NCBI GenBank assembly: GCA_025920705.1
Contig: JAPDLJ010000001.1
Coordinates: forward strand, 62,001-126,000
DNA: 64,000 bases
Reading direction: 5' to 3'
Origin: Candidatus Jingweiarchaeum tengchongense
GTDB lineage: Archaea > Nanobdellota > Nanobdellia > Jingweiarchaeales > Jingweiarchaeaceae
Shown here: positions 28,649 through 52,225 of the stretch, piece by piece
How positions within the stretch are numbered: position 1 is the first letter of the stretch
Layout: each line of letters begins with the position of its first letter
The notes under the pieces: generated by a model
Told to the model about the DNA's origin: nothing
The model's input: the letters and a program-made list of their open reading frames with translations, nothing else
Databases searched by the model: none
Made by a program: the position numbers and the translations under genes

Positions 28649-30949
28649 ATGCCTGAACAAAAGCAGCCTTGCTCATACCACGTTGAGAGGGAGGATTCTG
28701 AAAGAAATCTAGTTGTGAATTGTCTTGGATGTTGGTTCTATCCAAGTATCGAAGAAAATGAAGTATGCATGGAAAGAATAATCAACTACTTAGTTGAATC
28801 TGGACATATGAATTCGATTGTGCTTTCAAGTGAAAGAAACTATGTTTATCCAGATGAGCAAGCAAAGCTGCTGAATGAGATCGCAGATGTGTATGTTTAT
28901 TTGTTGAAGGAGAGAAACATCCTTAGTTACAAGCGATTGGTCGTTGATAAATATTCGATGAAGTACGTGCCAATCTGGTTGGGAACATTGAGAAGGATAT
29001 TAATGGAGCTCTTGAGAAGAGATCCAATCGGAGCTTATGTCGAGACGCTCAGAGTAATAAGAATACAGAAAATAAATTTGGATAAGGAAAGAGCTGAAGT
29101 GAAACCTTCTCTTGAAAATTACATTCATATTCTCGAGGAAATATTGACAGCATTGGAAAAAACATCATTGATACAGCAAGTGAAACCATACTTGCCTGGT
29201 TACAAAGTTGGAAGTAGGGAAATATACAGAAGAATATTCGAACCAATGATAAGACCAAATTTCATGTACACAAGATTAATGGCTGAACCGCCATTGAAAG
29301 GGGAAGAAGTTGAAAGTTATGAGATAGGTGAAAAGGATAGGAGTCAAGTCACAATATACAAATTACCTGACAGAGCGAGTCTGTTGTACCATATTATTCC
29401 ACCAGAATTCCAATTGAATGAGGAGGAGTACGTGCTTCTTGATGAAGCAAGAGAAGTACTCGTAAAATATAAACCACAGGAAAAGGAATTTGTTGATCCG
29501 CAAAGGATGAGGGAAGTCTTCTTCAACATTTCAAGAGATCTGATTGAAGAAATTGCGAATACGAAGAGAGTAAAGTTAACATATAATCAAATCGAGCAAT
29601 TGGCAAGAATATTAGTAAGATTGACTGTTGGATTTGGTCTGACAGAGGTTCTATTGCAAGATCCATACTTGGAAGATATTTATATCAATGCACCCATAGG
29701 GAGGATACCTATATTTGTGAAACATTCTAAATACGGTGAATGTTACACGAACATCATACCAAATATAAAAGAAGCTGAGGCTTGGGTCTCTCGTTTCAGG
29801 ATGATTTCTGGTAGACCATTAGATGAGGCAAATCCAGTGTTGGATACTGAGTTAATTACGCCTGAGGCAAGGGCGAGAGCTGGTATCATACAACCACCAC
29901 TCAGTCCAAAGGGATACAGTTTTGCATTTAGAAAACATAGGGAAAAGCCATGGACGCTACCCTTATTCATCAAACATAGAGCATTGACACCACTCTGTGC
30001 TGGTTTGTTGTGGTTCTGTGTCGATGGTGCAAGAACGATCCTTGTTGGTGGAACAAGAGGAAGTGGTAAAACATCATTGCTCGCTTCTTTGATTGCTGAG
30101 ATGATGCGAAGGTACAGGATATTAACTGTAGAAGATACATTGGAGCTTCCTGTTGATTACTTCAGAGATCTTGGTTATAACATTGTTTCAATGAAAGTTA
30201 GAAGCGCAATTGTTGGTGAAAAAAGTGAGATGAGCGCTGAGGAAGGAATAAGGACTTCCTTGAGGCTTGGTGATTCCTGCTTGGTGATCGGTGAGGTGAG
30301 GTCTAGGGAATCAGTTGCGCTCTACGAGGCAATGAGGATTGGTGCATTAGCAAATGTTGTGATGGGTACGATACATGGTGAGAGTCCATACGGTATATTT
30401 GACCGTGTTGTGAATGATCTTGGAGTTCCGAGGACAAGTTTCAAGGCAACGGACTTAGTAATTCTGTGCAATAAAATAAGAACACCTGATCAGATATTTG
30501 ATGTTAGGAGGGTCGTCCAGGTAACTGAGGTCAGAAAGCATTGGATGGAGGATCCAATGAAAGAGAAGGGATTCATCAATTTGATGGAATACGATGTCAG
30601 GGATGATGAGATAAAACCGACAAAGGATCTTATAGAAGGAGAAAGTGAGGTAATAAAGGCAATTGCAGCAAGAGTTAGACATTGGGCTGGAAATTGGGAT
30701 GCAGTGTGGGAGAACATTGTTTTGAGGGCTAAAATTAAGGAGATGCTCGTTGAATATGCGAAGAAAACAAACAATGATGCACTATTGGAAGCTGATTTCG
30801 TTGTGGATGCAAATGATCAATTTCACAAGATCTTCGAAAGATTGTCTGAGAAAACTGGATATCCTGAGAGCAAGGATGTTCTATATGAGTTCGAGAATTG
30901 GTTGAAATTGAGGATAAAAGGTAAAGAAATTGAACGAGGATCAAGCTAG
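28649..30949 (+). CDS. Type II/IV secretion (pilus assembly) ATPase, archaeal GspE/PilT/VirB11 superfamily
   Basis: 766 aa. Hexameric motor that drives assembly of type IV pilus-like filaments. The P-loop VGGTRGSGKTSLLASLIAEM lies around residues 463-482, followed by the Asp-box region TVEDTLELPVD, a Walker B region DSCLVIGEVRSRES and the His-box TIHGESPYGIFDRVVNDL. The N-terminus carries four Cys (8, 25, 28, 40; the core is NCLGCWFYPSIEENEVC) that could hold zinc or an Fe-S cluster. A helical N-terminal domain follows, then the 'LxDPxLEDIYINAP' region of archaeal secretion ATPases. It overlaps the membrane platform gene by 20 bases. Confidence 0.92.
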   Translation: MPEQKQPCSYHVEREDSERNLVVNCLGCWFYPSIEENEVCMERIINYLVESGHMNSIVLSSERNYVYPDEQAKLLNEIADVYVYLLKERNILSYKRLVVDKYSMKYVPIWLGTLRRILMELLRRDPIGAYVETLRVIRIQKINLDKERAEVKPSLENYIHILEEILTALEKTSLIQQVKPYLPGYKVGSREIYRRIFEPMIRPNFMYTRLMAEPPLKGEEVESYEIGEKDRSQVTIYKLPDRASLLYHIIPPEFQLNEEEYVLLDEAREVLVKYKPQEKEFVDPQRMREVFFNISRDLIEEIANTKRVKLTYNQIEQLARILVRLTVGFGLTEVLLQDPYLEDIYINAPIGRIPIFVKHSKYGECYTNIIPNIKEAEAWVSRFRMISGRPLDEANPVLDTELITPEARARAGIIQPPLSPKGYSFAFRKHREKPWTLPLFIKHRALTPLCAGLLWFCVDGARTILVGGTRGSGKTSLLASLIAEMMRRYRILTVEDTLELPVDYFRDLGYNIVSMKVRSAIVGEKSEMSAEEGIRTSLRLGDSCLVIGEVRSRESVALYEAMRIGALANVVMGTIHGESPYGIFDRVVNDLGVPRTSFKATDLVILCNKIRTPDQIFDVRRVVQVTEVRKHWMEDPMKEKGFINLMEYDVRDDEIKPTKDLIEGESEVIKAIAARVRHWAGNWDAVWENIVLRAKIKEMLVEYAKKTNNDALLEADFVVDANDQFHKIFERLSEKTGYPESKDVLYEFENWLKLRIKGKEIERGSS

Positions 30950-32957: not shown

Positions 32958-33478
32958 AGAAAGGAATATTGATGAGTACATTGTTCAAATTAGTGACTGG
33001 AGCCATTTTAATCATATTCGTAATCGTGATCGTTTCAGTGATTTTTGGCCCATATTTCCTGCCATATGGTTGTAACAATAATTGCATTTGCGAGAAAAGT
33101 AGGAAGGAAGACACAGGTGTTCCTTTGGTATTCAAACCATGCGCTGAAAAAGATTGTAATATTTCCGGCTCGATGAGATGTAATTGTGACTGTAAATGCG
33201 AGAAAATGATTGATTGCAGGCCAAATCAGCCAGAGAAATGTAGATGTAGACCTGGATACCAATGCACATTTGTCCCAACAGCAGATCCGAATGAGCAGTG
33301 GAGTAATTGTTCAAATCCAGATACAGGTGATTGGTACATCGCACCTGTCTGCGTCTATTATGAGAATCAATATTGTTGTCCAGATTGCGTTGCTGAGACT
33401 AGTGAGGCATGTAGGGCTACTTTAGACGCGTTAGGATGGAGCAGTGGAAATTGCCCTGTAGGTGCGGTAACATGGTAA
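32954..33478 (+). CDS. Cys-rich anchored protein of the pilus-like locus
   Basis: 174 aa with TTG start. A short basic leader MKKG precedes a hydrophobic helix (about residues 8-33), the form of a class III (prepilin-like) signal. The rest is extracytoplasmic and has about 22 Cys in 140 residues, including NCDCKCEKMIDC and the end segment YCCPDCVAETSEACRA, so multiple disulfides are expected. No recognised domain. TTG overlaps the platform gene stop by four bases. Confidence 0.75.
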   Translation: MKKGILMSTLFKLVTGAILIIFVIVIVSVIFGPYFLPYGCNNNCICEKSRKEDTGVPLVFKPCAEKDCNISGSMRCNCDCKCEKMIDCRPNQPEKCRCRPGYQCTFVPTADPNEQWSNCSNPDTGDWYIAPVCVYYENQYCCPDCVAETSEACRATLDALGWSSGNCPVGAVTW

Positions 33479-33624
33479 AAAAAGGGATAACAAAGGAAAT
33501 TTTGTTTTTAATAATATTATTAGTTGCACTTATATTTTCAATCGCTATATATTTGTTAGTAAATAAGACTGTATTCAAGGGAACATCAGATTTTTTTGAT
33601 TTTATGAAGAGGTTATTTGAATGA
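33472..33624 (+). CDS. Small single-helix pilin-like protein
   Basis: 50 aa from ATG 33472 (MVKKGITKEILFLIILLVAL), with GGTG ten bases upstream. The longer in-frame ATG at 33436 would overlap the upstream gene by 43 bases and spoil the short leader. Leader MVKKG is followed by a hydrophobic helix and a 20-residue charged tail. It overlaps the previous gene by seven bases and the next by four. Likely a minor pilin-like subunit or an assembly factor. Confidence 0.65.
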   Translation: MVKKGITKEILFLIILLVALIFSIAIYLLVNKTVFKGTSDFFDFMKRLFE

Positions 33625-34724
33625 AAAAAGGAGCATTGCAGCATTTCATTGCAATCTTCATCATAGCAGTAATCGCATTGCTACTATTACTCTTCTACAT
33701 TATCCCTGCTGTCTTCCCAATGGTTCCAAGCATAGGGGCACCCATATGCGCAACAAGTGTTTGTTTGAGAACTCTATATACTGAAGCAAGAGCAAAAACA
33801 TTTACAATTCCTATAATTGGACTCACGGTTGCAAGTGCTAGGCAAGTACTATTCGTTCAACCACCTTCTGTAAGAAGTATTTGCCCATATGGGACAGGTC
33901 AAATGATCACGAACACTTCCGGGCGAATTATTAAATATTCCCCAACTGCTTTAGAATGCGATATAACCAAAGAAGAATGTAGACAAAAATTGGAGAACAA
34001 GACGATAAAGAAAATAATTGATGATATAAACACTTGCTGGGGAATTTTCAAGACTTGCGGACAAGATCCATTAATGGAAGAACCAAACATATTTTATTTC
34101 TGTAGCTCAGTCTATTATGAATTAGGTAATTTAAATATTTTTTATCGTTGGATATATGAACAAATGGATGTAAATAGAAATGGTTCCCTTCAAAATAAGA
34201 CAGGTAAAGATATTCCAATCAAAATATTCAAATATGGTGGAGAATATGTACCACACGACTCATTTGATTTGTTTAATCAACGTGTGATCATACATACTGT
34301 GTTTATGGATTATGGGGCTCATGCTTGTCAATACGATGATGGTGAGTGCAATTCAACTTTAACTGCAGGTGAATGCTTAGCAAAAATATTTGGGGGTGAT
34401 TACGACAATGCATTGTATAATTATAGAAAAGCGAGCCTAGCGATACCTACTGAACGTGGCGAAGTTGAAACTTTTATAGTTATGGGTTCAAAATGCAGGA
34501 AAATGGTAACACCTGCTTGGCAAAATTATCCTCCAAAAGAAGGTGCAATTAATTGTTATGATGGTGCGAGTCTTGAAAGATTCTATATAGGTAGCTGGGG
34601 AATACCCATACGTTATACAAAACCGTGTTGGGAGCCGGATGGTGCAAACTTGTGTGATGATATCACTAATATTCCTTTTCAAGGATGTAAAGATCAAATC
34701 TGGTTAATTGTGCAACCAGTATAA
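33621..34724 (+). CDS. Anchored extracytoplasmic protein of the pilus-like locus (367 aa)
   Basis: Leader MKKG and a hydrophobic helix (about residues 10-32) precede about 330 extracytoplasmic residues with around 16 Cys and many potential N-glycosylation NxS/T sites. Hydrophobic and aromatic segments (IFYFCSSVYYELGNLNIFYR) suggest a folded globular domain. No family recognised. ATGA overlap with the previous gene. A TATA-like box follows its stop and belongs to the next gene. Confidence 0.75.
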   Translation: MKKGALQHFIAIFIIAVIALLLLLFYIIPAVFPMVPSIGAPICATSVCLRTLYTEARAKTFTIPIIGLTVASARQVLFVQPPSVRSICPYGTGQMITNTSGRIIKYSPTALECDITKEECRQKLENKTIKKIIDDINTCWGIFKTCGQDPLMEEPNIFYFCSSVYYELGNLNIFYRWIYEQMDVNRNGSLQNKTGKDIPIKIFKYGGEYVPHDSFDLFNQRVIIHTVFMDYGAHACQYDDGECNSTLTAGECLAKIFGGDYDNALYNYRKASLAIPTERGEVETFIVMGSKCRKMVTPAWQNYPPKEGAINCYDGASLERFYIGSWGIPIRYTKPCWEPDGANLCDDITNIPFQGCKDQIWLIVQPV

Positions 34725-34738
34725 AAATTATAAAAGAT
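34724..34738 (+). promoter_or_regulatory. Internal TATA-like box before the 673-aa gene
   Basis: Reads aaaattataaaagat, centred about 27 nt before ATG 34758, in the first clear gap inside the operon; that ATG has no ribosome site, so a leaderless internal transcript is likely. Confidence 0.5.
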
Positions 34739-34757
34739 AAATGCGTTCGTTATATAT

Positions 34758-36779
34758 ATGCCAAGTAGCGAATTCATCAAATATATTGGAATAATAATTG
34801 CATTACTTGTTCTCATCATATTGTCTTATGTGTTTGCAAGTGGTGGAATGGAGAACATGAGTAAAACATTATGTCAAACATCTGCAAGAGTTAGAAATTT
34901 TTGGTACCATAGTCCGCTAATAAACTTTCCCATTTTCAATATTGGTGCTTCCACATTTTCGCATCTTTCGGGTTGGGCTCCACCTCTTTTTTGTTCTCCT
35001 TCAAAAAAAATTCTTGATTTAACAAAGAGTAATAGGACTGAAATTCTGGATAAATTAGCAAAGGAAATATTGGATTGTTATGCTAAATATGGTGGGGATT
35101 CTTTTGATATATTGATGGATAATGCTAATAACCCACAACTTTGTTCGATTATGCACTTAAAATTGGGTGATAACAAGATAAATATGTCGGATCTTGTAAC
35201 ATTCCTTTCAACTTATAACGTAACATCCATAAATGCTAGAGATTGTAGAATATGTACAAATGAAGCAGGTGAATATTGTCCTAGTGGTTTTACTTGTATG
35301 GAAGATGGTAGTGTCTGTTATCAAGCAATTAAAGACTGTAACATAGAAAAATTTCCAGGAATAAAGTTTTGCCCATGTCCAAAGGATTTTTCTTGTAGTG
35401 GTGGAACAAAATGTGTGAAAGATTCTGTTGAAATTGATGCACCAGTTTGTTACAATTATACATCACCGTATTCTTGTAGAATAAATTTAACCTACGGAGA
35501 TTTAATGCGTGCACTTAGGATTGTATATGTTAGTTCCAATGTTTATGGTGTAAGCACTTGTAATATGGAAATGAAGAGTATTTCTTGTCCTGATGGGCGA
35601 ACTTACCAGTATCACGACCCAATATTCTGTGGTTGTAAAGAACCTTATAGTGATGAAGGTTATTGCTTGAATTTAACAAAATTAAAAGAAGATGGAAAAA
35701 TAACAGATAATAATGATTTATGCAAGCTAGTACAACGTAACCTTTCACTTGACAGTTTATGTAATACGTATAAAAATGATGTTTATGAATTCAATTGTGC
35801 ATCAAGCATATCTACTTTAATGTGTGATGATTCTTATGGTTGCGTTGAACCTAAACTCGGATACTCACTCCCAATCTATGGGTTTATAAGAGATGATTAC
35901 ACGCGTACTTTATACAATTTTACTGATGATATACTTACTGGTGAAATAGATTTATTTTTATTCTTCTCGGATCATTTTATAAGATCACTGTTAGAGAGTG
36001 GTAATGCTAAATTATCAGATCCATCTTTTTTATCTTCTTTAACTTATGCTGGCAGGACAACATATGGTTTTACAAATGCATTTATTAGATATTATCACAG
36101 TCCAAGTGTTTCTTCATATTTTCCTATGTCCACTACTCAGCTTACACAATTCCAGGCAGACGCCACTACATTCGGTTTTTTAAAAACAACAGAGAGTTAT
36201 TCTGGTAATTGGAAAAAATTTCTAAGAGATAAGAGTAGTTATTTCGGTGGTATAGCTAATCCTCCAATGAAATATGTAGCGCTCACAGCATTATCAGGTT
36301 CTTTTACTGCTGCAAGCACGAGGGTACCCATAGCATTTAACATTCCACCCATATGTGGTGGTGGTTGTGGACATACTGCTGGTGGTTGGGAAGCTTGGAC
36401 TGATATGGCAATAAATTGTGGTGTTGAATGTTTACCTTGTGCTGTTTCTACTACTGGTATTGTATATACTGCTGGCTTTGCTATTATACCTATATTAAAA
36501 CAATGTGCTGGTTGTATTGTATGTCTTGGTGAAGCAAGTCTTCAATCATATGCTTTCTGTTCACAACCAAGAGTCATATTGCCTCAAGATTCCGTACTGC
36601 TTTGTTACCATTCAGTAAACCCATTGCTAGATCCAACTCCTGGTTGTGGTGGAATAGGAGAAAGATGTTGCGCAGGTGATACATGTGACTATGGTTATTT
36701 ATTTTGTAGAGGAGGAAAATGTGATTATTATGAATATTCTTTGTATGCTCCCCTACCAGCCACTAGTCCAAGAATTTAA
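34758..36779 (+). CDS. Large Cys-rich anchored protein of the pilus-like locus (673 aa)
   Basis: The N-terminus MPSSEFIKYIGIIIALLVLI is a signal anchor without the basic MKKG leader of its neighbours. The extracytoplasmic part has more than 40 Cys. Small clusters such as EYCPSGFTCMEDGSVC and CPCPKDFSCSGGTKC resemble EGF/TIL-like knots. A Gly/Cys-rich region (CGGGCGHTAGGW) and a hydrophobic stretch around residues 565-585 lie near the C-terminus. The 'CPxGFxC' knots recur in the 638-aa protein of the same locus, suggesting partners or paralogous pieces. No enzyme motif seen. It probably has its own leaderless promoter. Confidence 0.75.
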   Translation: MPSSEFIKYIGIIIALLVLIILSYVFASGGMENMSKTLCQTSARVRNFWYHSPLINFPIFNIGASTFSHLSGWAPPLFCSPSKKILDLTKSNRTEILDKLAKEILDCYAKYGGDSFDILMDNANNPQLCSIMHLKLGDNKINMSDLVTFLSTYNVTSINARDCRICTNEAGEYCPSGFTCMEDGSVCYQAIKDCNIEKFPGIKFCPCPKDFSCSGGTKCVKDSVEIDAPVCYNYTSPYSCRINLTYGDLMRALRIVYVSSNVYGVSTCNMEMKSISCPDGRTYQYHDPIFCGCKEPYSDEGYCLNLTKLKEDGKITDNNDLCKLVQRNLSLDSLCNTYKNDVYEFNCASSISTLMCDDSYGCVEPKLGYSLPIYGFIRDDYTRTLYNFTDDILTGEIDLFLFFSDHFIRSLLESGNAKLSDPSFLSSLTYAGRTTYGFTNAFIRYYHSPSVSSYFPMSTTQLTQFQADATTFGFLKTTESYSGNWKKFLRDKSSYFGGIANPPMKYVALTALSGSFTAASTRVPIAFNIPPICGGGCGHTAGGWEAWTDMAINCGVECLPCAVSTTGIVYTAGFAIIPILKQCAGCIVCLGEASLQSYAFCSQPRVILPQDSVLLCYHSVNPLLDPTPGCGGIGERCCAGDTCDYGYLFCRGGKCDYYEYSLYAPLPATSPRI

Positions 36780-36793
36780 TGGAGGTTGTATGA

Positions 36794-36949
36794 ATGAAAA
36801 AAGGAATTGAAAGGGAAGTAATGCAATTGTTACTTGCGCTCTTTGTTTTATTCACAGTAATACTGATTATCATATTTTTAAGAGGAAAAGGTGATGAGCT
36901 AATTGAAAAAATACAGAAATTATTTTCATTTGGTTGGTTGACTGGATGA
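36794..36949 (+). CDS. 51-aa single-helix pilin-like protein
   Basis: ATG AAA AAA GGA..., with GGAGGT seven bases upstream (36781-36786), one of the best ribosome sites in the locus. The product starts MKKGIEREVMQLLLALFVLF, with a leader of four residues, a Glu-containing start and then a hydrophobic helix to about residue 29, and a short tail ending FSFGWLTG. It has the size and layout of other single-helix subunits here. It overlaps the next gene by four bases (ATGA). Confidence 0.7.
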   Translation: MKKGIEREVMQLLLALFVLFTVILIIIFLRGKGDELIEKIQKLFSFGWLTG

Positions 36950-37095
36950 TGAAAGCTGCAATAAAATTAACAACAGAAGTAATAATTGTATTAACATTAT
37001 TCATCATCTTCTTGATCCTTGTAATGATTGCATTTGGACCAAGGAGTCTAATTGGTTGGTTAGCAGGAGTTTTAAACATCACATTTCCGTGGTAA
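36946..37095 (+). CDS. 49-aa single-helix pilin-like protein
   Basis: ATGATG start overlapping the stop of the previous small gene. The product starts MMKAAIKLTTEVIIVLTLFI: leader MMKA, Glu a few residues into the mature part, then a hydrophobic helix, and an end LNITFPW. The next gene's ATG follows the stop by one base. This tight spacing and the shared layout support it as a real gene. Confidence 0.65.
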   Translation: MMKAAIKLTTEVIIVLTLFIIFLILVMIAFGPRSLIGWLAGVLNITFPW

Positions 37096-37096
37096 G

Positions 37097-38685: not shown

Positions 38686-38862
38686 ATGATGAAGAAAAAG
38701 GCAGCGATTAGCTTAAGCACCGAAACGATCGTTATAATTGTTGTAGCACTTGTTCTTTTTATTATTCTTTTACTACTTGTTTCTAAGGGTTTTAGGGAAA
38801 TCGTTATCAAAGTCTTTAATCTAATGCGAGGAGTACCAAATGCGACTGTTGTTTTCCCGTGA
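38686..38862 (+). CDS. 58-aa single-helix pilin-like protein
   Basis: ATGATG at 38686 gives MMKKKAAISLSTETIVIIVV, a basic leader ending in Ala, a Glu seven residues into the mature part, a hydrophobic helix and a short tail. The same frame is open upstream to 38608, but that would run inside paralogue 3. It closely resembles the 49-aa protein at 36946 in layout ('A-I-K/S-L-T/S-T-E' before the helix). It overlaps the next gene by 23 bases. Confidence 0.65.
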   Translation: MMKKKAAISLSTETIVIIVVALVLFIILLLLVSKGFREIVIKVFNLMRGVPNATVVFP

Positions 38863-41993: not shown

Positions 41994-43891
41994 CACAAGT
42001 AGATATAATCATGTCCTTGACTACAGTGATAATTGTAGTCATCGCACTATCTACACTTATTTATTTAGCTGAATGGGTTGCAACACCGATTTCTCATCGT
42101 GCTGCATTGTTAAACTTAATGCAAAAAGTTGAGATGATAAAAACGAAGATATTACAAGAAAGAAAATACAAATTTGAGAAAGCTGAATTCTTCTTGGGTA
42201 CAATGGGTACAACTACTCCTAGCTGTGGTCTTGCTGATATTTGGTTTTTAAATCTTCCTGAGAAAAGTGCGTTTTATATGAAAAAAGGAAGTATGACTTG
42301 TTATTTAAATGCTGATGATGCGGTAAAATTATTGGAAAATATGACAAATACTTTCTATAATTACACAAGTTTAACTGAAACATTCGGAACAGAGACAGTT
42401 GATGAAATTAAAAACTTTGAATATGGTAAAATAAGGTATAAAAGTTATTTTGATAACTATAAAATCCAACCTCAAAGTTTAACAACAACGTCGAATTACG
42501 CGTGTGGAATGCATAATTGTCCTCCTGGTTTTATTTGCAGTGATGACAAAGTTTGGTGTGAAAGAATAATAACAAAATGTGATTTCTATCAAGCTTTTAC
42601 AGATCATCCAGATAGTATCATTTGCAATGCAAGTGAAGTTTGTCCAGCTGGTTACTCACCGGTCTACAGGTGTGAAGACCCATTGGAAGAAATCGTTTGT
42701 TGTGATAATAATTGGGTTGCAAGAAGTGAGCATTATAACATTTATTTTTGCAACAATACAGAAGAAATTTGCGCTGATCCAGACTGTACCACTACCGAAA
42801 CTGTAACTGTGTGTAAATATAATAGTGATATAATGCAACCATATAACAGTGGAAATTGCAATAATGTCAATTGTGGTTCAAAAATTATTTCTGAAGGAAA
42901 TTTATATTTTGAATCATACTTCCAAGCACCTTTTTGTATTGGTGCTTGGTATGAAAGCGCCATTGCTGGCTATACTAATCTTATTTATTTACAACGTGTG
43001 AAACCATTACCAATAAAATCAAGCGGAGAATTCACATTTGTACCTGCGTACGATGAACACATCGAAGCAAGTACAGAAAAATACACAACAAAAATAGAAT
43101 ATACAGATAGTCTAGTTACGCATCTAAGTCCGAAGCTATATTTAATAGACGAATACAATTATGCAGAGAGTTATGTTAGTTCTGAATGGTTTGAAAATAA
43201 ACTTCAGGAATATTTCTTTAATTTATCCACCAGATACGTACCTAATATTTGGATAAACGGAAATGAAGTTCCAGTCGCTGATTGGCTTGCTGGATTAATC
43301 ATAAATTTGGGTGGTGTAAGTGCACTACCACCTTGTGCATTAGTACCAAGAACAATTTCTGGTGTAACTTACACATCATATGAATGTACTGCTTGTTGGG
43401 ATGAATGTAAAAGTAGATTAGGAGCTGCTTTTTGTAACAGTACAGTTGCATTTAAGAAAAGAGTAGAAAATGAGTTTTTTGAAAAAACAGGATATCATTT
43501 AAAAATAAATCCCAAAGAAATAAGAGTTAGGGTTGGATTGTTGTGTGATCCAATTGATCCTGGGCCAGAAGAAAGAATCTTATCCTTACCAATAAAATTA
43601 ATATTTGCTACGTCTGCAGGTGGAATGATTATAAATGATTCAAATTGTAGAATTAGACCGGATGGTGGAACACAGCCATTAGCAGACGGTGGATGGAAAG
43701 ATGCATTTGTTTTTATAATAGGTAAAGAAGTTACTGACTCTCCGTGTGCTACAAATTTCATTATGTATTGTAAAGATTTAAGAAATGGTATATGTGCAAA
43801 TGGTACAAGTTTTACTTGTCCAGTAGATTCATTTTGTGACAAGAATTCAAATGCGTGCATAAAAACAAACTGTCCGGAGTTGTGGAATTAA
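41978..43891 (+). CDS. Cys-rich anchored protein of the pilus-like locus (637-638 aa)
   Basis: Start ATG 41978 (MANRIAQVDIIMSLTTVIIV) is preferred over 41939: AGAGG lies seven bases upstream and it yields leader MANRIA before Gln. After the helix, about 600 extracytoplasmic residues carry around 35 Cys, with knots such as NCPPGFICSDDKVWC, ICNASEVCPAGYSPVYRC and TCPVDSFCDKNSNAC that echo those of the 673-aa protein. No enzyme motif seen. It ends at the base before the giant gene starts, so the two are certainly co-transcribed. Confidence 0.75.
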   Translation: MANRIAQVDIIMSLTTVIIVVIALSTLIYLAEWVATPISHRAALLNLMQKVEMIKTKILQERKYKFEKAEFFLGTMGTTTPSCGLADIWFLNLPEKSAFYMKKGSMTCYLNADDAVKLLENMTNTFYNYTSLTETFGTETVDEIKNFEYGKIRYKSYFDNYKIQPQSLTTTSNYACGMHNCPPGFICSDDKVWCERIITKCDFYQAFTDHPDSIICNASEVCPAGYSPVYRCEDPLEEIVCCDNNWVARSEHYNIYFCNNTEEICADPDCTTTETVTVCKYNSDIMQPYNSGNCNNVNCGSKIISEGNLYFESYFQAPFCIGAWYESAIAGYTNLIYLQRVKPLPIKSSGEFTFVPAYDEHIEASTEKYTTKIEYTDSLVTHLSPKLYLIDEYNYAESYVSSEWFENKLQEYFFNLSTRYVPNIWINGNEVPVADWLAGLIINLGGVSALPPCALVPRTISGVTYTSYECTACWDECKSRLGAAFCNSTVAFKKRVENEFFEKTGYHLKINPKEIRVRVGLLCDPIDPGPEERILSLPIKLIFATSAGGMIINDSNCRIRPDGGTQPLADGGWKDAFVFIIGKEVTDSPCATNFIMYCKDLRNGICANGTSFTCPVDSFCDKNSNACIKTNCPELWN

Positions 43892-46800
43892 ATGAATGGT
43901 ATGATAAATAAGATTTGGAGGAAAAAATATCTACTCTTATTACTTATTGCTTTCTTTGTCCTACTATTCACATTTAAAGGAACAAATGCTGGTTGTGATT
44001 TTACTTGTGCTACATTAGATGGAGAATGTTCTATGCATTTGTGGTTGGGTGGGGGTACTGGTATACCATCTTGTACATTAGGTTCATTCTATGATTCAGG
44101 TGCATGGGGTATATGTTGGCGTTGGTGGCCTGGGAATACTTGGTGTAGATGCAATGATTGTAGACAAGGTGATGTAAGATGGATAGAAAATTATTATTGT
44201 CCAAATACATGGAATAATGAATTTGATGAGAAAGATTGTACTGTTATAGTAGATGCATGGGATTGGGGTTGTTATGGAAGACCTTTACCAGGAAAATGGG
44301 ATGCACCATATAGACAATGTGTCAAATGTGATAGTAGAATGAAGGTGAAAAGATTTAATGATCCAGACAGAAGAAAAAAAATAGATGAGTTATGGAGTGA
44401 AGATAATCCTCCAAAAGAATTAGATCCAAGTATAACAAATATAGCTCACAAATGTGAAGCTGCTTGTGGAGCATCTAGAGAATGCGATGATAAAGACCCT
44501 TCTTACACAACTTGTACAAATGGAGCTCCTCAGCATTGTAATTACAATTCACAATGTGTTTTGGGACCACCAAATCCAAAGTGTGATAGTTATAGTATAT
44601 GTGGTGGTAGCCCTCAATGTAATGGTATATATACTGGATATTATTTTTGCAGTGAGTTTAACACATGGGCTTCTTGTATGAATTGTAATTATGATGAAGG
44701 GTTCTGCGATAATACTCACTGTAATCAAGCAAGTCATTGGTGCCAAGGGAAAAAAAGAAACACAGCAGGATGTACTTCGGCATCAGTATGTGGTGGACAT
44801 TGCCGTGTAGAATGTGACAGTTATTGTCAAAGTGTGGGAGCAGTATGTAATGTTGATTGTAATGCAAGTCCAGCATGTGATGGCAGAACACCGAATTCAT
44901 CTCAGTGTACTAGTCATGAAAATGGGGATTATTACAAGTGTGATCCAAATTGCATTGCTGGCTCTTGGCAGGATTGTGGAGTATCAAGCTGTGGCGCTTC
45001 TTGTCCAGGAGTCGGATGTAATTGGGTATTTAGATATTGTTCTGTTGAAGAAGGTGGATGTCAAAGCCAAATATGGGATTTAGATAATTATGAGGATAAA
45101 TGCAAAACATGTATGGGAAATCCAAAATTATGGCAGGCTGGTGGTGATATATCAAATTGTTGTGGTGATGATCCGAATGAATATTTATTAGAATGTAGAT
45201 ATAATACAACTATTTGGTCAAGTGTGGATGAAAGTCCATGTAAAGGGGTACAAGCTATAAATGAGGCATGTTGTGATTCAGCTACTGATTGTGTTTGGAA
45301 AGATAATTGTATAGCAAACGGACAGAGATTACCTATAAATTCCTCTGTTTTTTGCAATAATGGTGTGTGGGATTATATTGGAACTGCTAGTATATATGAA
45401 GTAAGGATATTCGATGAAGAAGCGCATTACTGTAGAGCAACTGCCTGTGCAAATGCATATGGAACTGTTGTTTCTTGTATAGTCCAGGAATCAGAAGGTA
45501 ATTTAACAATAGGAACACTGGTTGGCGCAAATCAGCCTCCAGATTTTCCATTGCCACCGGATGGTCCATCAAGAGCAAATGTTGATGAACTTGTGTCTTT
45601 CAGTGCTAGCACTACGGATCCTGATGGGGATCAGATAAAGTATGAATTTGACTGGGGGGATGGGACAACAAGTGAAAGTATATATGTAAATTCGGGTGAT
45701 GTAGTTGTTCTCTCACATTCATGGAGCAGTGCTGGTACATATTGTGTAAAAGTTAAAGCAATAGATAATAATAGCTTATCTTATGGCTATTCTGCATGTC
45801 ATTGGATAAAGATAAATGCACCACCAAGCGTACCGATTATCTATGGTCCTACATTTGGTAAAATAGGCGAAACTTATGAGTACAATGTAAGCTCAGTTGA
45901 TCCGGAAGGAGATTTTATAAACTATATAATATTTTGGGAATATTCACTTGAAGTACCAAACAGTACATCCATATCACCAACAGCTTCTGGTATAAATTAT
46001 ACATTTTCACACGTTTGGTTTAATTATGGTTTATATTGTATAAAAGCGCAGGCCATAGATGTTTGGGGTGCAAAATCTGCACTTTCACCTTGTTTAGAAA
46101 TGAGAATAAATTCACCACCAAGAATACCAAAATTAATTGGGCCAGATATTGGTACATTTGGTGAAACATATGAATACATGGCTAATACTACGGATCCTGA
46201 TGGGGATCAGATAAAGTATGAATTTGACTGGGGGGATGGGACAACAACTAGTTTAACTAGTTTTGTTGACTCTGGAACTTCACAGAACATGTCACATACA
46301 TTCAATTTAAGAGGTCAATTTTGTGTGAGAGCAAGAGCAATTGATAATAATAGTTTAATGTCAGCATGGTCACCTTGTATCCCAATGATTGTTAATTCTC
46401 CACCAACTATACCAAGTATATCAGGAACTGATGAAGGAAAAGCATTTAATAATTATGGATTTGAATTTTTATCAACGGATCCTGATGGAGACCAAATACA
46501 ATATGAAATCGATTGGGGGGATGGAAACAAAGAAATAACCTCAGTCTCAGACTCTGGCGTTTCTAAAACAGTAAATCATATCTGGACAATAGAAGGTACA
46601 TTTTGTGTGAGAGCAAGAGCAATTGATTTGCCATTCCTTGCTGCTTCTGATTGGTCTCCTTGTTTCAATGTTATAATTTCTGGAGTTAAAAATTGGCCAA
46701 TGTTTAAATATAATAATAAGCATATAGGGTCGATAGATCTTGGTGGACCAATTGTTAATAAAACATTATGGAAATTTAACACAGGTGGAATGATTATTTC

Positions 46801-49800
46801 GTCGCCTGCAGTAGTTGATGACATTGTTTACTTTGGTTCTCTGGATCATAATTTATATGCAGTATATGCAGTAAATGGAACATCTTTATGGAATTATACA
46901 ACTGGGGATGCTATATTTTCTTCGCCTGCTGTAAGTAATAATATTGTCTATTTTGGTTCTTTAGATAATAAATTCTATGCATTAAATGCAAGAACTGGTG
47001 CACTTATATGGAGTTATAATGTAGGTAGTTCAATCTGGTCCTCGCCTATTGTACATCAGGGAAAAGTATTCTTTGGTGCTGATGATGGGAAATTATATGC
47101 TCTAGATGCAAATACGGGAGCTTTTATATGGAGTTATAATACAGGTAGTGCGCACATATACTCTTCTCCAGCAGCTACTGGTGATAGTGTATACTTCGGT
47201 GATTGGAATGGTAAAATCTATGCACTTTATGCAAATAATGGAACATTGAAGTGGAGTTACAATACTGGAGGAATAATAGAAGGTGCTCCTGTTATTGTAG
47301 ACAATATCCTTTACATTGGTTCACAAGATGGTAAGTTATATGCACTTTATGCAAATAATGGAACATTGAAGTGGAGTTATAGCAGTGGTAACATGATATA
47401 TGGCAGTGCTGTGGTTTCTGGAAATAAGGTAATATTTGGATCGGGAAATAGTGTTTATGCATTATTTACCGAGAATGGTAGTTTGAAATGGAGTAAAAAT
47501 CTAGGCGGATCAACTATAGATACTCACCCTATCATCGCGGATTTGTTGTATGTTCCAACTGGAAATGGTTTATATGCATTAACTCCATATGATGGTGGAA
47601 TAATATGGAGTCATAGTATAGGTCAATTCATAGAAGGTTCACTTGCAGTAGCTAATATTACAAGTAGTAGTAGATTTTATCCTAATCCAATAATTCAACC
47701 AGACTATTATATTACAGGTGATAATATACTCTTTATCGGAATAGGAAGTAGTTTATATGCAATATTCGATAACTCAGCACCAAATGTACCTATAATAACT
47801 GGCCCGAAAACAGGATATCCGGGCACAAGTTATACATATACATTCAATAGTAGTGATCCAAATTGGGATAAAATAAAATACGTCGTTGATTGGGGAGATG
47901 GGACAATAAGTTCAAGTGGATATTTAGATTCTGGAACTTCTTATACTGTTTCTCACACATGGAGTAATTATGGTACTTATACAATAAAAGTAACTGTTTA
48001 TGATGAGCACCTTTGGAACTCAACGAATACAACAAAGATGAGTTTCTGCTATCCAGATTGGAACAATGTTACATACTTTGATAAATCAGCTGTGAAGAGT
48101 GTAACAAATATCGTTGCAATAAGAATTACAGTAAAACCAGTAAATGATAGCTATTCAAGATGTTATGGTTCTTGGGCTAGATATTCAAATGGAACTTATG
48201 TTGCTTTGGGGACCTATCATCCACCTGCTACTCAAACTTGTCATGATCCAAATAATTGGGATGGTTGGTGTAATTGTATTGTAATTAATGGGGAAACTAC
48301 GATCACACATAACTTGGTAGATTATGGAATAACAACGCCGTTTACTGGAACAATTGAGACAAGAGTAAGTGATGGATGTTGTGGTGCTGTCGGGGATCCA
48401 AAATGTGGTACCCCAACTTATTGGCTAGTAAATTGGACATCAATATTATTCCAAGATGATTTTAATGATGGGAATGATAATGGATGGACGAGAATCAAGG
48501 GAACCTGGTATGTTGATAATGGAATTTATTATCAAAATGATTCATATTTCTATCCCGATACATTAGATTATTTAAGTGTAGCTGGAGATGTGAATTGGAT
48601 TAATTATACATTAGAAGCAGATGTAAGGAATACATATGTGTTACCATCCTCTCCGGATTCGGAATCAATGTCCTTGGTTTTTAGATACACCCCAAACGCT
48701 TCTGTTCCATTAGGTGGTGAATTTTATCGCGTAATGCTGGAGGATTGCGATCCACCGTCTCACGGAGCATGTAGAAATGCATATATTGAATATGCAAATG
48801 GTTGGGATGGTGCTTGGGTAGCTCATCCTGGAATTTCGGGATGGGAAGTATTAAATTCAACTTCCTTTAATTACGATCCACTTGTATGGCATCACTTTAA
48901 AGTTGAGGTAATGGGTCCAAATATTAAATGGTGGGTCGATGGTAATTTATTATTAACAGCTTATGATACTCGATTAACAAAAGGAAAAATTGGTGTACTA
49001 TCAAATAAACCAACACAATTTGATAATGTGATTGTGCACGATGATCCAACAGAACCGATATCTTCTGCTTCATCTGTACTATTCATTTCTGAGAAGGAGA
49101 ACGAAGATAAAACATTTAACATTTCATTTCCACTGCTAAGAATAAGCAAAGATATATTGTATAAAACTACGATTGAAGAGAAAGATAGTAATCTTGGAAT
49201 AAATTATATTAAAGAACTGCTATATATTTTAGATTCAATAACCAAAAATTCTAAGGAAATATTTAATTACTATGTGAGTAATACATTACAGGGCTTTAAG
49301 CACTTATCTTTAAATTTACGACACATACTTAATTTCTATTTGAATGGGCTAAAAATTTTTGGAGATAACCTTAAATCAGATTTGTATGCACTAATGCAAA
49401 ATAAGGAAACTAAGGAACATAAAGAAAGCTTTGCATTTCCTGCTTATAGCCAACCGCCAAAAATCACGTCAAATATGATGGTCAATGAAAAGATAAATAC
49501 ATTGTTAGAGAAGCATAAGGAAAATAATATTGATCCACCATTTAGATGTCCTGACTTTGATAAAGACGAGATAATAAATGTTGAAATAATAATAAAGAAG
49601 GATGCGCTTGGAGGTAAAACAAAGGTAATCTTAGGAATAATGGATGATTTTGGTAGAAATAAAGTTGAATGGAGTTGGTCAACTGGAAGCAACGTAATAT
49701 ATAGTATACCACAAAGGATCTCTGGTTTACCTAGATGTATGAAAATAAATGAAACAATTAGTTGGGACAATGAAATAAACGCAAATGAAGAAATGACATT

Positions 49801-52225
49801 TATTTGTCAATTCGATGCTAGGGATTACCGGGATATCTCGCCAAATAATCCATTAAATTTCACCATTTACACTTGTTGGGATGGTTTTGATGCAAATGGG
49901 GATGGATCATTTGATTGTAGAAGTGATGCGATAAGTGTATTTAATGCATCAACAACAATTGGTATGAATGGACCATTACATGATGTAAGAGTAAAAAGAG
50001 TTGGTTCACTTGATTTAAAAATAAATTCAATTATCCCAAGTTTAGAATCTGGAAAAATTGAAGTAAATGGAACAATTGATTTTGTTTACCAGAATGGTGT
50101 AAGTAGATATGCATTAAATTCGTCAACAGAAGGGGGAGATTGTCCTGGTGGTAAATGTATCGTTTGCGCATTACTTGGAGCAGATGAGGAAGGAGTATTA
50201 TGGGTAAGAGACGATGAAACAACAAGATATGATTATGGTGTGGATCGACCTTCATGGTTACAAGAGTGGGTTGGTTTAATTTATAAAAAATCTGATGGTC
50301 CATTAAACTTATATGTTCCTGGTATGGGAAGTTTTGTTTCAGATTATTGGTTCGATGGAATACACAGGACAGAGTCATCAAGTTATCCAAAAAATTATGC
50401 ATTGAGTTGGAGTAATTCTTTGTATAATGATACGCTCGTGTGGTTTGGACTTACACCTGGGGCAATCGATGATCCAGCTGGTATAAACAATACATTATAC
50501 TATGATTCATTCCAGGGATGTTGTAATGATACGAATAGTTGTGTGAATCCAAATACATATGGAAGTTTAAATATTAAAGGGGTTTGCGGTGGTGGATACA
50601 AGAAAGATGGTAATATTTTCAAATCAACTGAATTCGATGAAAGTGTGAATCCGTCGGGTGGTAATATCATGCAGGGATTCCATCTAATTAGATTTATCAC
50701 AACAAATGCTGGATTTAATTGTTTGAAAGATCCATCTGTCTCAGCCGCTTTGAATTGTAATTATGATTATTACGCAAAAAGTTGTTGTGTAAGAAAGGGG
50801 ATGAGTTGTAGCGAGGAAGAAGGTCCTTACAATGTATACTACGCAAATCCTGAAACAGGATATTTGTCCATGTTACCTCCATTGCCCCCATTATTACAAT
50901 GTTCTGATACAACTAATGCTAGTTATAGTGAGGCAAAGTGTGAGAAACTCAAATTCTATGAGAATAAAGATGAAGTTGATTATTTAATAAGTGCTAGTGA
51001 TTATGTTAGGGAAAAGAGATTTGATAGAAACTTCCCACAATTCAATGTGAAGAATAGTAAGACAATAAAAGTTGAATACTGTGATGTAAATGAGACAGGA
51101 CATTTCAATTGCACAGTTCCTTATAAAGAATTCAAAGCGAAATACTTAGCTTGCGTTGCAAAGAACAAGTACGCATCTGGCTATAAAGTAGTATCATACA
51201 ACACAACAAAAATTTGCTTGAACTTCCAAGTTTCTCATGATACCATACATACGATTTATACAGATTTCTATTTACCAATTCTAGTAGGTTGGAATGAGAC
51301 ATATGGATTCTTCTATCCAGATTCACCCATAGAAAAATTGAAGAATATGACAAACCTACCTCCACTAATACCAAATATCACAGGACCTGTAAGTGGTAGA
51401 ATTAATACTGCATACAACTTCCAGGCGAATACAACAGACCCAAATGGTGATCTAGTCAAATTTGTATTTGATTGGGGAGATGGAACCATATCTGAAAGTG
51501 AATACGTGGATCCAAGTATGTTAGCAGTAATGATGAATCATTCATGGTCAACAACTGGAGTTAAATGTATAAAGGTTAAAGCAATTGATATCTACGGTGC
51601 AGAATCTGATTTCTCATCTTGTTATAATATAAATATTGTCTCTGTTCCAATTTGTGGAAATGGTGTTGTAGATCCTGGGGAAGTATGTGATCCTAGTGCC
51701 ACACCGAATGGATGTCCTCCAAACCAAGTTTGTAAGAATTGGTGTACTAGATGCACTACTTGTGGGAATGGGATAATAGATCCTGCAGAGGAATGCGATC
51801 CCATGTCACCGATCGATACCTGCGGTCCGTTTGAATATTGTAGTAGCGTTAATTGTTTCTGCAGACCCATGATTGGTTGTTTAGAAAAGGGAAGTTTGAT
51901 TTTAACACCCAGTGGTTATAGAAGAATTGAGGAGATAAAAGAGGGTGACATTGTAATTGGCTATGAAAATTGGAGAAAAGTAATGACAAAAGTATTAAAA
52001 ACTGCTGTACATCAAGTAAATACGACACTTTACTATTACAAAGGTTATTGGTTCACAGGGAACCACCTAGTCTACACAGACGATTATAAAGAATTCAAAT
52101 CAGTTACCGAGTTTACGAATATAACGAAACACTATGTGGGTGAAGTTTACGACATACAAACAGAAATTGGAAATTACTTTGGTACGGACAATTTCCTAAT
52201 ACACAATAAACCCATCCCAGTGTAA
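43892..52225 (+). CDS. Giant secreted PKD / PQQ-propeller protein with C-terminal Hint autoprocessing domain (2777 aa)
   Basis: Sec signal or anchor at residues about 10-32 (KKYLLLLLIAFFVLLFTFKG), then order by residue: Cys-rich region to about 540; four PKD domains (about 545-925, marked DPDGDQIKYEFDWGDGT); a PQQ-type eight-ish-bladed beta-propeller (about 930-1300, repeats 'VYFGSxDxKLYALxAxTGxxxWSY'); another PKD; a lectin/LamG-like beta domain (about 1513-1720); a helical stretch; several beta and Cys-rich domains including a Ca-binding-like DANGDGSFDC; a last PKD (about 2487-2585); a CGNG...PGEVCDPS Cys stalk; and a Hint domain from Cys2663 to Asn2772. No sorting motif or C-terminal membrane helix. 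It is the last gene of the pilus-like operon and probably the tip adhesin or a secreted partner. Confidence 0.85.
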   Translation: MNGMINKIWRKKYLLLLLIAFFVLLFTFKGTNAGCDFTCATLDGECSMHLWLGGGTGIPSCTLGSFYDSGAWGICWRWWPGNTWCRCNDCRQGDVRWIENYYCPNTWNNEFDEKDCTVIVDAWDWGCYGRPLPGKWDAPYRQCVKCDSRMKVKRFNDPDRRKKIDELWSEDNPPKELDPSITNIAHKCEAACGASRECDDKDPSYTTCTNGAPQHCNYNSQCVLGPPNPKCDSYSICGGSPQCNGIYTGYYFCSEFNTWASCMNCNYDEGFCDNTHCNQASHWCQGKKRNTAGCTSASVCGGHCRVECDSYCQSVGAVCNVDCNASPACDGRTPNSSQCTSHENGDYYKCDPNCIAGSWQDCGVSSCGASCPGVGCNWVFRYCSVEEGGCQSQIWDLDNYEDKCKTCMGNPKLWQAGGDISNCCGDDPNEYLLECRYNTTIWSSVDESPCKGVQAINEACCDSATDCVWKDNCIANGQRLPINSSVFCNNGVWDYIGTASIYEVRIFDEEAHYCRATACANAYGTVVSCIVQESEGNLTIGTLVGANQPPDFPLPPDGPSRANVDELVSFSASTTDPDGDQIKYEFDWGDGTTSESIYVNSGDVVVLSHSWSSAGTYCVKVKAIDNNSLSYGYSACHWIKINAPPSVPIIYGPTFGKIGETYEYNVSSVDPEGDFINYIIFWEYSLEVPNSTSISPTASGINYTFSHVWFNYGLYCIKAQAIDVWGAKSALSPCLEMRINSPPRIPKLIGPDIGTFGETYEYMANTTDPDGDQIKYEFDWGDGTTTSLTSFVDSGTSQNMSHTFNLRGQFCVRARAIDNNSLMSAWSPCIPMIVNSPPTIPSISGTDEGKAFNNYGFEFLSTDPDGDQIQYEIDWGDGNKEITSVSDSGVSKTVNHIWTIEGTFCVRARAIDLPFLAASDWSPCFNVIISGVKNWPMFKYNNKHIGSIDLGGPIVNKTLWKFNTGGMIISSPAVVDDIVYFGSLDHNLYAVYAVNGTSLWNYTTGDAIFSSPAVSNNIVYFGSLDNKFYALNARTGALIWSYNVGSSIWSSPIVHQGKVFFGADDGKLYALDANTGAFIWSYNTGSAHIYSSPAATGDSVYFGDWNGKIYALYANNGTLKWSYNTGGIIEGAPVIVDNILYIGSQDGKLYALYANNGTLKWSYSSGNMIYGSAVVSGNKVIFGSGNSVYALFTENGSLKWSKNLGGSTIDTHPIIADLLYVPTGNGLYALTPYDGGIIWSHSIGQFIEGSLAVANITSSSRFYPNPIIQPDYYITGDNILFIGIGSSLYAIFDNSAPNVPIITGPKTGYPGTSYTYTFNSSDPNWDKIKYVVDWGDGTISSSGYLDSGTSYTVSHTWSNYGTYTIKVTVYDEHLWNSTNTTKMSFCYPDWNNVTYFDKSAVKSVTNIVAIRITVKPVNDSYSRCYGSWARYSNGTYVALGTYHPPATQTCHDPNNWDGWCNCIVINGETTITHNLVDYGITTPFTGTIETRVSDGCCGAVGDPKCGTPTYWLVNWTSILFQDDFNDGNDNGWTRIKGTWYVDNGIYYQNDSYFYPDTLDYLSVAGDVNWINYTLEADVRNTYVLPSSPDSESMSLVFRYTPNASVPLGGEFYRVMLEDCDPPSHGACRNAYIEYANGWDGAWVAHPGISGWEVLNSTSFNYDPLVWHHFKVEVMGPNIKWWVDGNLLLTAYDTRLTKGKIGVLSNKPTQFDNVIVHDDPTEPISSASSVLFISEKENEDKTFNISFPLLRISKDILYKTTIEEKDSNLGINYIKELLYILDSITKNSKEIFNYYVSNTLQGFKHLSLNLRHILNFYLNGLKIFGDNLKSDLYALMQNKETKEHKESFAFPAYSQPPKITSNMMVNEKINTLLEKHKENNIDPPFRCPDFDKDEIINVEIIIKKDALGGKTKVILGIMDDFGRNKVEWSWSTGSNVIYSIPQRISGLPRCMKINETISWDNEINANEEMTFICQFDARDYRDISPNNPLNFTIYTCWDGFDANGDGSFDCRSDAISVFNASTTIGMNGPLHDVRVKRVGSLDLKINSIIPSLESGKIEVNGTIDFVYQNGVSRYALNSSTEGGDCPGGKCIVCALLGADEEGVLWVRDDETTRYDYGVDRPSWLQEWVGLIYKKSDGPLNLYVPGMGSFVSDYWFDGIHRTESSSYPKNYALSWSNSLYNDTLVWFGLTPGAIDDPAGINNTLYYDSFQGCCNDTNSCVNPNTYGSLNIKGVCGGGYKKDGNIFKSTEFDESVNPSGGNIMQGFHLIRFITTNAGFNCLKDPSVSAALNCNYDYYAKSCCVRKGMSCSEEEGPYNVYYANPETGYLSMLPPLPPLLQCSDTTNASYSEAKCEKLKFYENKDEVDYLISASDYVREKRFDRNFPQFNVKNSKTIKVEYCDVNETGHFNCTVPYKEFKAKYLACVAKNKYASGYKVVSYNTTKICLNFQVSHDTIHTIYTDFYLPILVGWNETYGFFYPDSPIEKLKNMTNLPPLIPNITGPVSGRINTAYNFQANTTDPNGDLVKFVFDWGDGTISESEYVDPSMLAVMMNHSWSTTGVKCIKVKAIDIYGAESDFSSCYNINIVSVPICGNGVVDPGEVCDPSATPNGCPPNQVCKNWCTRCTTCGNGIIDPAEECDPMSPIDTCGPFEYCSSVNCFCRPMIGCLEKGSLILTPSGYRRIEEIKEGDIVIGYENWRKVMTKVLKTAVHQVNTTLYYYKGYWFTGNHLVYTDDYKEFKSVTEFTNITKHYVGEVYDIQTEIGNYFGTDNFLIHNKPIPV
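45611..45671 (+). repeat. 61-base exact repeat in PKD-coding sequence, copy 1
   Basis: Identical to 46187-46247; encodes TDPDGDQIKYEFDWGDGT. Other PKD domains of the protein encode the same motif with different bases, so these two were homogenised recently. Confidence 0.95.
46187..46247 (+). repeat. 61-base exact repeat in PKD-coding sequence, copy 2
   Basis: Partner of 45611-45671, 576 bases downstream. Confidence 0.95.
47219..47259 (+). repeat. 41-base exact repeat in propeller-coding sequence, copy 1
   Basis: Identical to 47339-47379, exactly 120 bases (one 40-residue propeller blade) apart; encodes YALYANNGTLKWSY. Confidence 0.9.
47339..47379 (+). repeat. 41-base exact repeat in propeller-coding sequence, copy 2
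   Basis: Partner of 47219-47259, one blade further on. Confidence 0.9.
51878..52222 (+). other. Hint (hedgehog/intein) domain coding segment of the 2777-aa protein
   Basis: Block A is CLEKGSLILTPSGYRRIEEI with Cys at the N-terminal junction and the usual KEGDIVIGY turn. Block B is FTGNHLVYT, giving the TxxH motif. Blocks F and G are VYDIQTEIGNYF and NFLIHN, ending in the His-Asn pair at residues 2771-2772. Only KPIPV follows, so there is no C-terminal extein and no Cys/Ser/Thr at +1. At 110 residues it is a minimal domain without homing endonuclease. Known Hint domains of this form cleave at the N-terminal Cys through a thioester. Confidence 0.88.

What the first reader, a model, noticed from the sequence alone, without database searches (positions are those of the whole stretch)
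28649..52225. A 23.6-kb operon for a type IV pilus-like surface machine built mostly from unrecognised proteins
Seen: a secretion ATPase and TadC/F-type platform are followed, same strand, by thirteen N-terminally anchored proteins and one 2777-aa giant. Most neighbours overlap by 4-23 bases; the main breaks precede 34758, 37610 and 38214. Established: ATPase plus platform is the minimal motor of archaeal type IV filaments. Inference: the downstream genes encode filament, assembly and adhesin parts of a machine that differs from archaella and Tad/Aap pili. No archaellin, ArlH-like or prepilin peptidase gene is present here.
Basis: partly seen in the sequence, partly recalled or inferred. Interest (0 to 1): 0.85.

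Follow-up and report, generated by a model that had tools for sequence, protein, structure and literature searches.

The report
DPANN type IV pilus-like operon
This stretch encodes a whole type IV pilus-like machine of a tiny (DPANN) archaeon: its motor is nearly universal in that phylum and already known, but its fast-evolving filament proteins, including a cysteine-rich pilin-like family, had mostly escaped recognition.

Summary
Behind a T2SSE-type ATPase and a TadC-like platform come 15 proteins with one N-terminal anchor, 13 with a prepilin-like K/R-G/A motif, then a 2777-aa secreted protein (PKD, PQQ propeller, LamG-like, C-terminal Hint). Gene order is conserved: profile matches that exclude the anchor link several cassette genes to relatives in the same order, and the operon precedes FKBP-FtsZ in two other families too. 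The ATPase occurs in 266 of 279 genomes of the phylum. Three paralogues define a cysteine-rich pilin-like family whose cysteine domain alone finds 40 of 279 genomes; in about 24 it lies just downstream of this motor. The core (ATPase, TadC, coiled-coil genes) matches 'locus 2' published for cluster-2 DPANN (PMC11291902), and such islands were already called divergent pilins (PMC6393860). It is not an archaellum; a prepilin peptidase lies elsewhere in the genome. Most likely it assembles an attachment filament. The filament, adhesin role and host contact are inferred; AlphaFold/Foldseek gave no pilin match.

The parts
28133..28525 (-). Coiled-coil cytoplasmic protein (130 aa), divergent from the ATPase; matches the published 'CCP' of DPANN T4P locus 2
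   Evidence: Profile hits 112 proteins in 61 loci, none with a TM segment; divergent from the ATPase in 29 of 39 relatives' loci
28649..30949 (+). Assembly ATPase, 766 aa (T2SSE/VirB11 superfamily), with a ~250-aa N-terminal extension
   Evidence: PF00437 63 bits; best PDB match 2oap, A. fulgidus; 266 of 279 phylum genomes at E<=1e-60
30930..32957 (+). TadC/ArlJ-type membrane platform, 675 aa (TTG start)
   Evidence: Homologues in 54 of 56 same-class genomes; homologous to own second platform, which passes PF00482
32954..33478 (+). Anchored Cys-rich protein; the TTG start gives prepilin-like MKKG|IL
   Evidence: Sequence; motif and anchor
33472..33624 (+). Missed gene: 50-aa prepilin-like protein MVKKGITKEILFL...
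   Evidence: overlaps both neighbours by a few bases
33621..34724 (+). Anchored prepilin-like protein (367 aa), shares a domain with 34758
   Evidence: Profile match to the 34758 family, E=3e-12
34758..36779 (+). Anchored Cys-rich protein (673 aa, 42 Cys); its N-terminal ~165-aa domain is a conserved family
   Evidence: 25 hits in 23 loci; anchor-stripped hhalign prob 96, E=1.7e-9 to L040/L044
36794..36949 (+). Missed gene: 51-aa prepilin-like protein
36946..37095 (+). Missed gene: 49-aa prepilin-like protein
37097..37570 (+). Cys-rich pilin-like paralogue 1 (candidate major pilin)
   Evidence: Alignments A1/A3 with invariant cysteines; family searches
37610..38089 (+). Cys-rich pilin-like paralogue 2 (candidate major pilin)
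38214..38669 (+). Cys-rich pilin-like paralogue 3 (candidate major pilin); AF2 model: N-terminal helix 9-44, then short helices and strands (pLDDT 71)
38686..38862 (+). 58-aa prepilin-like protein (ORF listed as 38608)
38840..39634 (+). Anchored protein, conserved slot after the pilins
   Evidence: Anchor-stripped hhalign prob 94, E=8.5e-8 to L040:10514/L044:7672
39644..40738 (+). Anchored protein, minor-pilin slot 1
   Evidence: hhalign prob 60 to L053:15964, weak
40732..41517 (+). Anchored protein, minor-pilin slot 2
   Evidence: hhalign prob 94/90/80 to L046/L044/L053; 7 relatives' loci
41514..41993 (+). Anchored protein, minor-pilin slot 3
   Evidence: Iterated whole-protein profile finds 6 relatives' loci, E to 1e-40; anchor-stripped match prob 64
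41978..43891 (+). Anchored Cys-rich protein, minor-pilin slot 4
   Evidence: Iterated profile finds 4 relatives' loci; anchor-stripped hhalign prob 85
43892..52225 (+). 2777-aa secreted surface protein: PKD domains, PQQ beta-propeller, LamG-like (3keto-disac_hyd) domain, C-terminal Hint domain; candidate adhesin
   Evidence: Pfam; 115 Cys and 50 N-glycosylation sequons

Best explanation
A chromosomally fixed operon for a DPANN-specific archaeal type IV filament system. Proposed mechanism: prepilins are inserted in the membrane by a positively charged leader ending K/R-G/A and cut by the stand-alone A24 peptidase encoded elsewhere in the genome. The hexameric ATPase (28649) drives the platform (30930), which extracts pilins from the membrane into a helical filament. 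The three cysteine-rich paralogues (37097, 37610, 38214), possibly with the four ~50-60-aa mini-pilins, would form the filament body. The block 39644-40732-41514-41978, with 33621/34758 and 38840, would prime, cap or decorate it. The 2777-aa Sec-exported protein would be the tip or surface adhesin. The coiled-coil proteins, which lack any membrane segment, would act at the cytoplasmic face. Shown by sequence: motor, platform, anchors with motif, conserved order, genetic linkage of the pilin-like family to the motor. Inferred: a filament, which subunit is major, adhesin role, host contact.
For: ATPase and platform homology. ATPase in 266/279 phylum genomes, listed matches mostly 49-62% identical over nearly the whole length. 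Cassettes of anchored proteins follow the pair in many relatives. Slot homology in the same order after removing the anchor and by iterated profiles. Same flanking FKBP and FtsZ genes downstream in G026 and G037. Prepilin-like motif enrichment p=1.4e-10. Prepilin peptidase in genome. Cysteine domain of the pilin-like family alone found in 40/279 genomes; comparing coordinates, about 24 of the 40 lie within ~13 kb downstream of the ATPase/platform on the same strand. Published proteomics: proteins of the equivalent loci are made in Nha. antarcticus (PMC11291902).
Against: Foldseek finds no pilin (or any confident match) for the AF2 model of 38214, which is itself only moderately confident. The pilins' KAQG leader does not meet the strict FlaFind rule. 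About half of relatives' loci lack a recognised pilin beside the pair. No filament has been seen in this organism. Slot matches for 39644 and 41514 are weak without the anchor.
Confidence: 0.8

Rival explanations
1. A type II secretion-like pseudopilus: the same motor and pilins form a short piston that exports or displays the giant and other Cys-rich proteins rather than a long filament.
For: Many different minor-pilin-like subunits, few candidate major pilins per operon, and a large secreted protein encoded in the same operon. The nearest solved relative, 2oap, is annotated 'type II secretion'.
Against: Archaea of this kind are not known to have an outer membrane to cross (general knowledge); the giant has its own Sec-type N-terminus. 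The GspE model scores about 31 bits vs cutoff 630.
Confidence: 0.15
2. An archaellum-like or DNA-uptake filament rather than an adhesion pilus.
For: The ATPase's best NCBIfam model is FlaI/ArlI (149 bits). A KaiC-type ATPase with a second platform lies ~12 kb past the operon's end.
Against: Score far below the FlaI cutoff of 550; the KaiC protein scores 44 vs ArlH cutoff 215. Solved ArlI branches with other ATPases of this genome, not with this family. No archaellin recognised in the operon. DNA uptake was not tested.
Confidence: 0.1
3. A loosely linked cluster: ATPase and platform use pilins encoded elsewhere, and the anchored proteins here are unrelated surface proteins.
For: In 20 of 39 relatives' loci the pair has no recognised pilin next to it; haloarchaeal PilB3 loci also lack pilins (PMC4858521).
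Against: Conserved order of several slots over long divergence; same-strand linkage of the Cys domain to the motor in about 24 of 40 genomes; overlapping genes.
Confidence: 0.05

Closest known systems
DPANN cluster-2 type IV pilus 'locus 2' (PMC11291902)
   Same: Assembly ATPase + TadC + coiled-coil protein genes, conserved in Nanoarchaeota, Woesearchaeota, Pacearchaeota, Nanohaloarchaeota and Aenigmarchaeota
   Different: Here a 16-gene cassette ending in a 2777-aa protein follows directly; the second coiled-coil gene lies ~126 kb away (G000:C1:216360). The text read names filament proteins (FlaF, PilA) only for locus 1.
DPANN 'dark matter' type IV pili islands (PMC6393860, Fig. 2A)
   Same: ATPase, TadC, surface proteins and signal-bearing unknown proteins predicted to be diverse pilins
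   Different: No families, slots or cysteine-rich pilins defined in the text; whether this exact locus type is drawn could not be checked (figures are not held).
Euryarchaeal clade 2 T4P (PilB3/PilB4; PMC4858521)
   Same: VirB11-family ATPase plus TadC with minor pilins; clade said to include a few Nanoarchaea
   Different: No PilA-type match by Pfam/NCBIfam; placement of this ATPase among the published clades was not tested.
Archaellum (ArlI/ArlJ/ArlH)
   Same: ATPase and platform superfamilies
   Different: Below FlaI and ArlH cutoffs; no archaellin recognised.
Bacterial Tad/Flp pili and T2SS
   Same: ATPase and platform superfamilies
   Different: TadA-type model 120 vs 373 bits, GspE ~31 vs 630; no secretin or TadZ recognised in the operon.

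Membership tests
Archaeal type IV filament system (broad) | VirB11/T2SSE-superfamily assembly ATPase | tested here: met
   PF00437 63 bits; PDB 2oap E=5e-30
Archaeal type IV filament system (broad) | TadC/PilC-type platform next to the ATPase | tested here: met
   (direct Pfam hit only E=0.28; met through a homologue that passes)
Archaeal type IV filament system (broad) | Prepilins with class III signal (charged leader, G/A cut site, hydrophobic helix) | tested here: inconclusive
   13 of 15 anchored proteins show a relaxed motif; the strict FlaFind pattern is met at the leader by 6 plus 33472 by reading
Archaeal type IV filament system (broad) | Prepilin peptidase | tested here: met
   PF01478 over cutoff at G000:C37, not in the operon
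Archaeal type IV filament system (broad) | Pilin fold of the candidate subunit | tested here: inconclusive
   AF2 pLDDT 71, long N-terminal helix plus strands; no Foldseek match at E<=0.001
Archaeal type IV filament system (broad) | A filament on the cell | not testable with these tools
   Needs microscopy
DPANN T4P locus 2 (PMC11291902) | ATPase + TadC + coiled-coil protein genes | tested here: met
   28133 coiled-coil gene divergent from the ATPase; second one at C1:216360
DPANN T4P locus 2 (PMC11291902) | Sequence orthology to the Nha. antarcticus locus-2 genes | not tested
   That genome was not fetched; Nanohaloarchaea and Aenigmatarchaeota loci do carry the same ATPase and coiled-coil families
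Archaellum | ArlI equivalog score | tested here: not met
   149 vs cutoff 550
Archaellum | ArlH beside the motor | tested here: not met
   None in the operon; KaiC-type protein nearby scores 44 vs 215
Tad/Flp pilus | TadA-family score | tested here: not met
   120 vs 373
Bindosome (Bas) | BasE score | tested here: not met
   72 vs 1000

The most novel reading that the evidence does not exclude
A distinct, phylum-wide class of archaeal type IV filament built from disulfide-rich pilins, with cytoplasmic coiled-coil scaffolds and a tandem set of small polytopic membrane proteins as extra core parts and, here, a self-processing (Hint-tailed) giant adhesin, used for host attachment by DPANN episymbionts.
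Probability: 0.3. Interest if true: 0.8.

Novelty: new variant of a known kind. Interest (0 to 1): 0.5.

Why it matters
Cultivated DPANN archaea live attached to other cells, and at least one set of their pilus clusters has been noted to lack annotated pilins (PMC9563170). Here a near-universal motor (266/279 genomes) is tied by gene order to a definable cysteine-rich pilin-like family and to conserved minor-pilin slots, which gives concrete proteins to look for in filaments of cultured DPANN.

Tried and rejected
Archaellum, Tad and bindosome membership by NCBIfam cutoffs: rejected. Structure route: AF2 + Foldseek gave no PDB match for pilin 38214 or for the 34758 N-terminal domain (the latter model is poor, pLDDT 55). 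The pilin profile with its N-terminus hit 301/371 genomes but with the anchor removed only 40/279, so the larger figure mostly reflects the generic prepilin N-terminus. The Hint domain as a shared feature of such giants: rejected; it is not found elsewhere in this genome, and only partial intein-like matches occur in 10 other genomes of the class. Disulfide-forming VKOR/DsbA in this genome: none found (genome 92.5% complete). The tree contains two unusable rows (Haloterrigena, where my gene caller picked a wrong frame, and L007, very long), so only the separation of the solved ATPases from this family is used. A first bulk hhalign run timed out.

Full report
Observation. The window is G000:C1:62001-126000 of a 1.12-Mb, 40-contig genome. 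Named relatives found with the ATPase are Woesearchaeota, Pacearchaeota, Parvarchaeota, Aenigmatarchaeota, Nanohaloarchaea and Nanoarchaeota genomes, i.e. DPANN. Three further genes of ~50 aa lie in what looked like gaps: 33472-33624, 36794-36949 and 36946-37095. With these the run has 18 genes, and the only gaps over 33 nt are 39 nt before 37610 and 124 nt before 38214. ORF 38608 probably starts at 38686. The TTG start at 32954 gives MKKG|IL, a prepilin-like leader.

Motor. 28649 is a T2SSE ATPase that fails the NCBIfam cutoffs for ArlI, TadA-type, BasE and GspE. In a tree, solved ArlI, A. fulgidus 2oap and CpaF group with four other ATPases of this genome on a long branch, apart from the window family; the closest paralogue in this genome (L005) lies beside a thermosome gene, which resembles 'locus 1' of PMC11291902. 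Tree caveats: two unusable rows and many long branches. The window ATPase type was found in 266 of 279 genomes of the phylum at E<=1e-60, mostly one match each. The platform is weak in Pfam (E=0.28) but homologous to a platform in the same genome that passes the T2SSF cutoff.

Cassette. In relatives the ATPase-platform pair is often followed by many same-strand proteins with one N-terminal anchor: 187 of 215 have it, against 262 of 937 other genes, and the prepilin-like motif is enriched. To avoid matches driven by the hydrophobic anchor, the first 35 residues were removed before profile-profile comparison: 34758 matches a protein in the corresponding position in L040 and L044 (prob 96), 38840 matches L040/L044 (94), 40732 matches L046, L044 and L053 (94/90/80), 41978 matches L046 (85); 39644 and 41514 match L053 only weakly (60, 64). 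The order 39644-40732-41514-41978 is the same in those loci. Iterated profiles with the anchor extend this and show that 33621 and 34758 share a domain. Of 39 relatives' loci with at least 7 kb downstream, 29 have the divergent coiled-coil gene, 19 a pilin-family protein, 14 the 34758 family and 10 the 38840 family; 20 have no recognised pilin next to the pair. In G026 and G037 the operon is followed by the same FKBP and FtsZ genes as in the window, with L11 also shared in G037.

Candidate major pilins. 37097, 37610 and 38214 are paralogues with relatives sharing invariant cysteines. A profile including the anchor hits 301 of 371 phylum genomes, but most of that is the generic N-terminus. The cysteine domain alone (A3) hits 40 of 279 genomes. 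Comparing those coordinates by hand with the ATPase/platform coordinates, about 24 of the 40 lie on the same strand within ~13 kb downstream; many of the rest are on other contigs of draft assemblies. AF2 of 38214 gives an N-terminal helix 9-44 and a small mixed domain, pLDDT 71, but no PDB match. So 'pilin' rests on position, N-terminus and linkage, not on a fold match. A prepilin peptidase was found at C37.

Giant. 43892-52225 carries PKD domains, a PQQ propeller and a LamG-like domain, 115 cysteines and 50 N-glycosylation sequons, and ends in a Hint domain (PF13403 20.5 bits, below its cutoff; inteins and a bacterial intein-like domain as weak PDB matches) that stops a few residues before the end of the protein. 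In relatives, large secreted proteins also lie at the end of the cassette, some with PKD or FG-GAP domains, but this tail was not found in them.

Coiled-coil and membrane partners. The divergent coiled-coil family (28133) has no membrane segment in 112 hits, which argues for the cytoplasm rather than for a surface attachment protein as suggested in PMC11291902. The second coiled-coil gene of this genome is at C1:216360 (50% identity to the relative's gene), next to small 4-5-TM proteins whose homologues lie within 6.5 kb of the ATPase in all 35 loci where they were found with it, on the same strand in 34.

Known work. Makarova et al. 2019 (PMC6393860) interpreted such DPANN islands as divergent pilins. 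The 2024 Nha. antarcticus paper (PMC11291902) described two conserved T4P loci in cluster-2 DPANN with coiled-coil proteins and proteomic support. PMC9563170 notes that no pilins were annotated in its nanohaloarchaeal T4P clusters. The 2016 census (PMC4858521) does not mention the DPANN lineages searched for, other than Nanoarchaeum. What is added here: the missed genes, the slot homologies, the linked Cys-rich pilin-like family, the prevalence of the ATPase, and the conserved small polytopic neighbours. Papers outside the open library could not be checked.

Verdict. A type IV pilus-like operon of a DPANN archaeon, of a published locus type, in an extended form; a function in attachment is inferred.

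Noticed in passing
G000:C1:126023-130611 (just past the window end; L038): Second TadC-like platform (628 aa) with four small anchored proteins and a KaiC-type ATPase: a second T4P-like locus
   Followed up: partly
G000:C1:216282-218455 (L142) and 35 relatives' loci: Conserved tandem 4-5-TM small membrane proteins beside the second coiled-coil gene, linked to the ATPase across the phylum
   Followed up: partly
L041/L115 ATPase; L061 and L114 ATPase: Intein-like insertions in relatives' ATPase genes, apparently at two sites (P-loop; before the EAxALYEAM stretch)
   Followed up: no
window 51854-52222: C-terminal Hint domain on the giant, not found elsewhere in this genome
   Followed up: partly
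window 2026-12396 (-): 3456-aa giant with CBM96, disintegrin-like and bacterial Ig-like domains
   Followed up: partly
window 13758-15605: 615-aa protein with a TM segment near each end and a Lon_C (S16) protease domain
   Followed up: no
G000 genome: Seven T2SSE-family ATPases in a 1.1-Mb genome
   Followed up: partly
G000:C34:53046-53357: A fourth protein matching the pilin profile (E=1.4e-14) outside the operon
   Followed up: no
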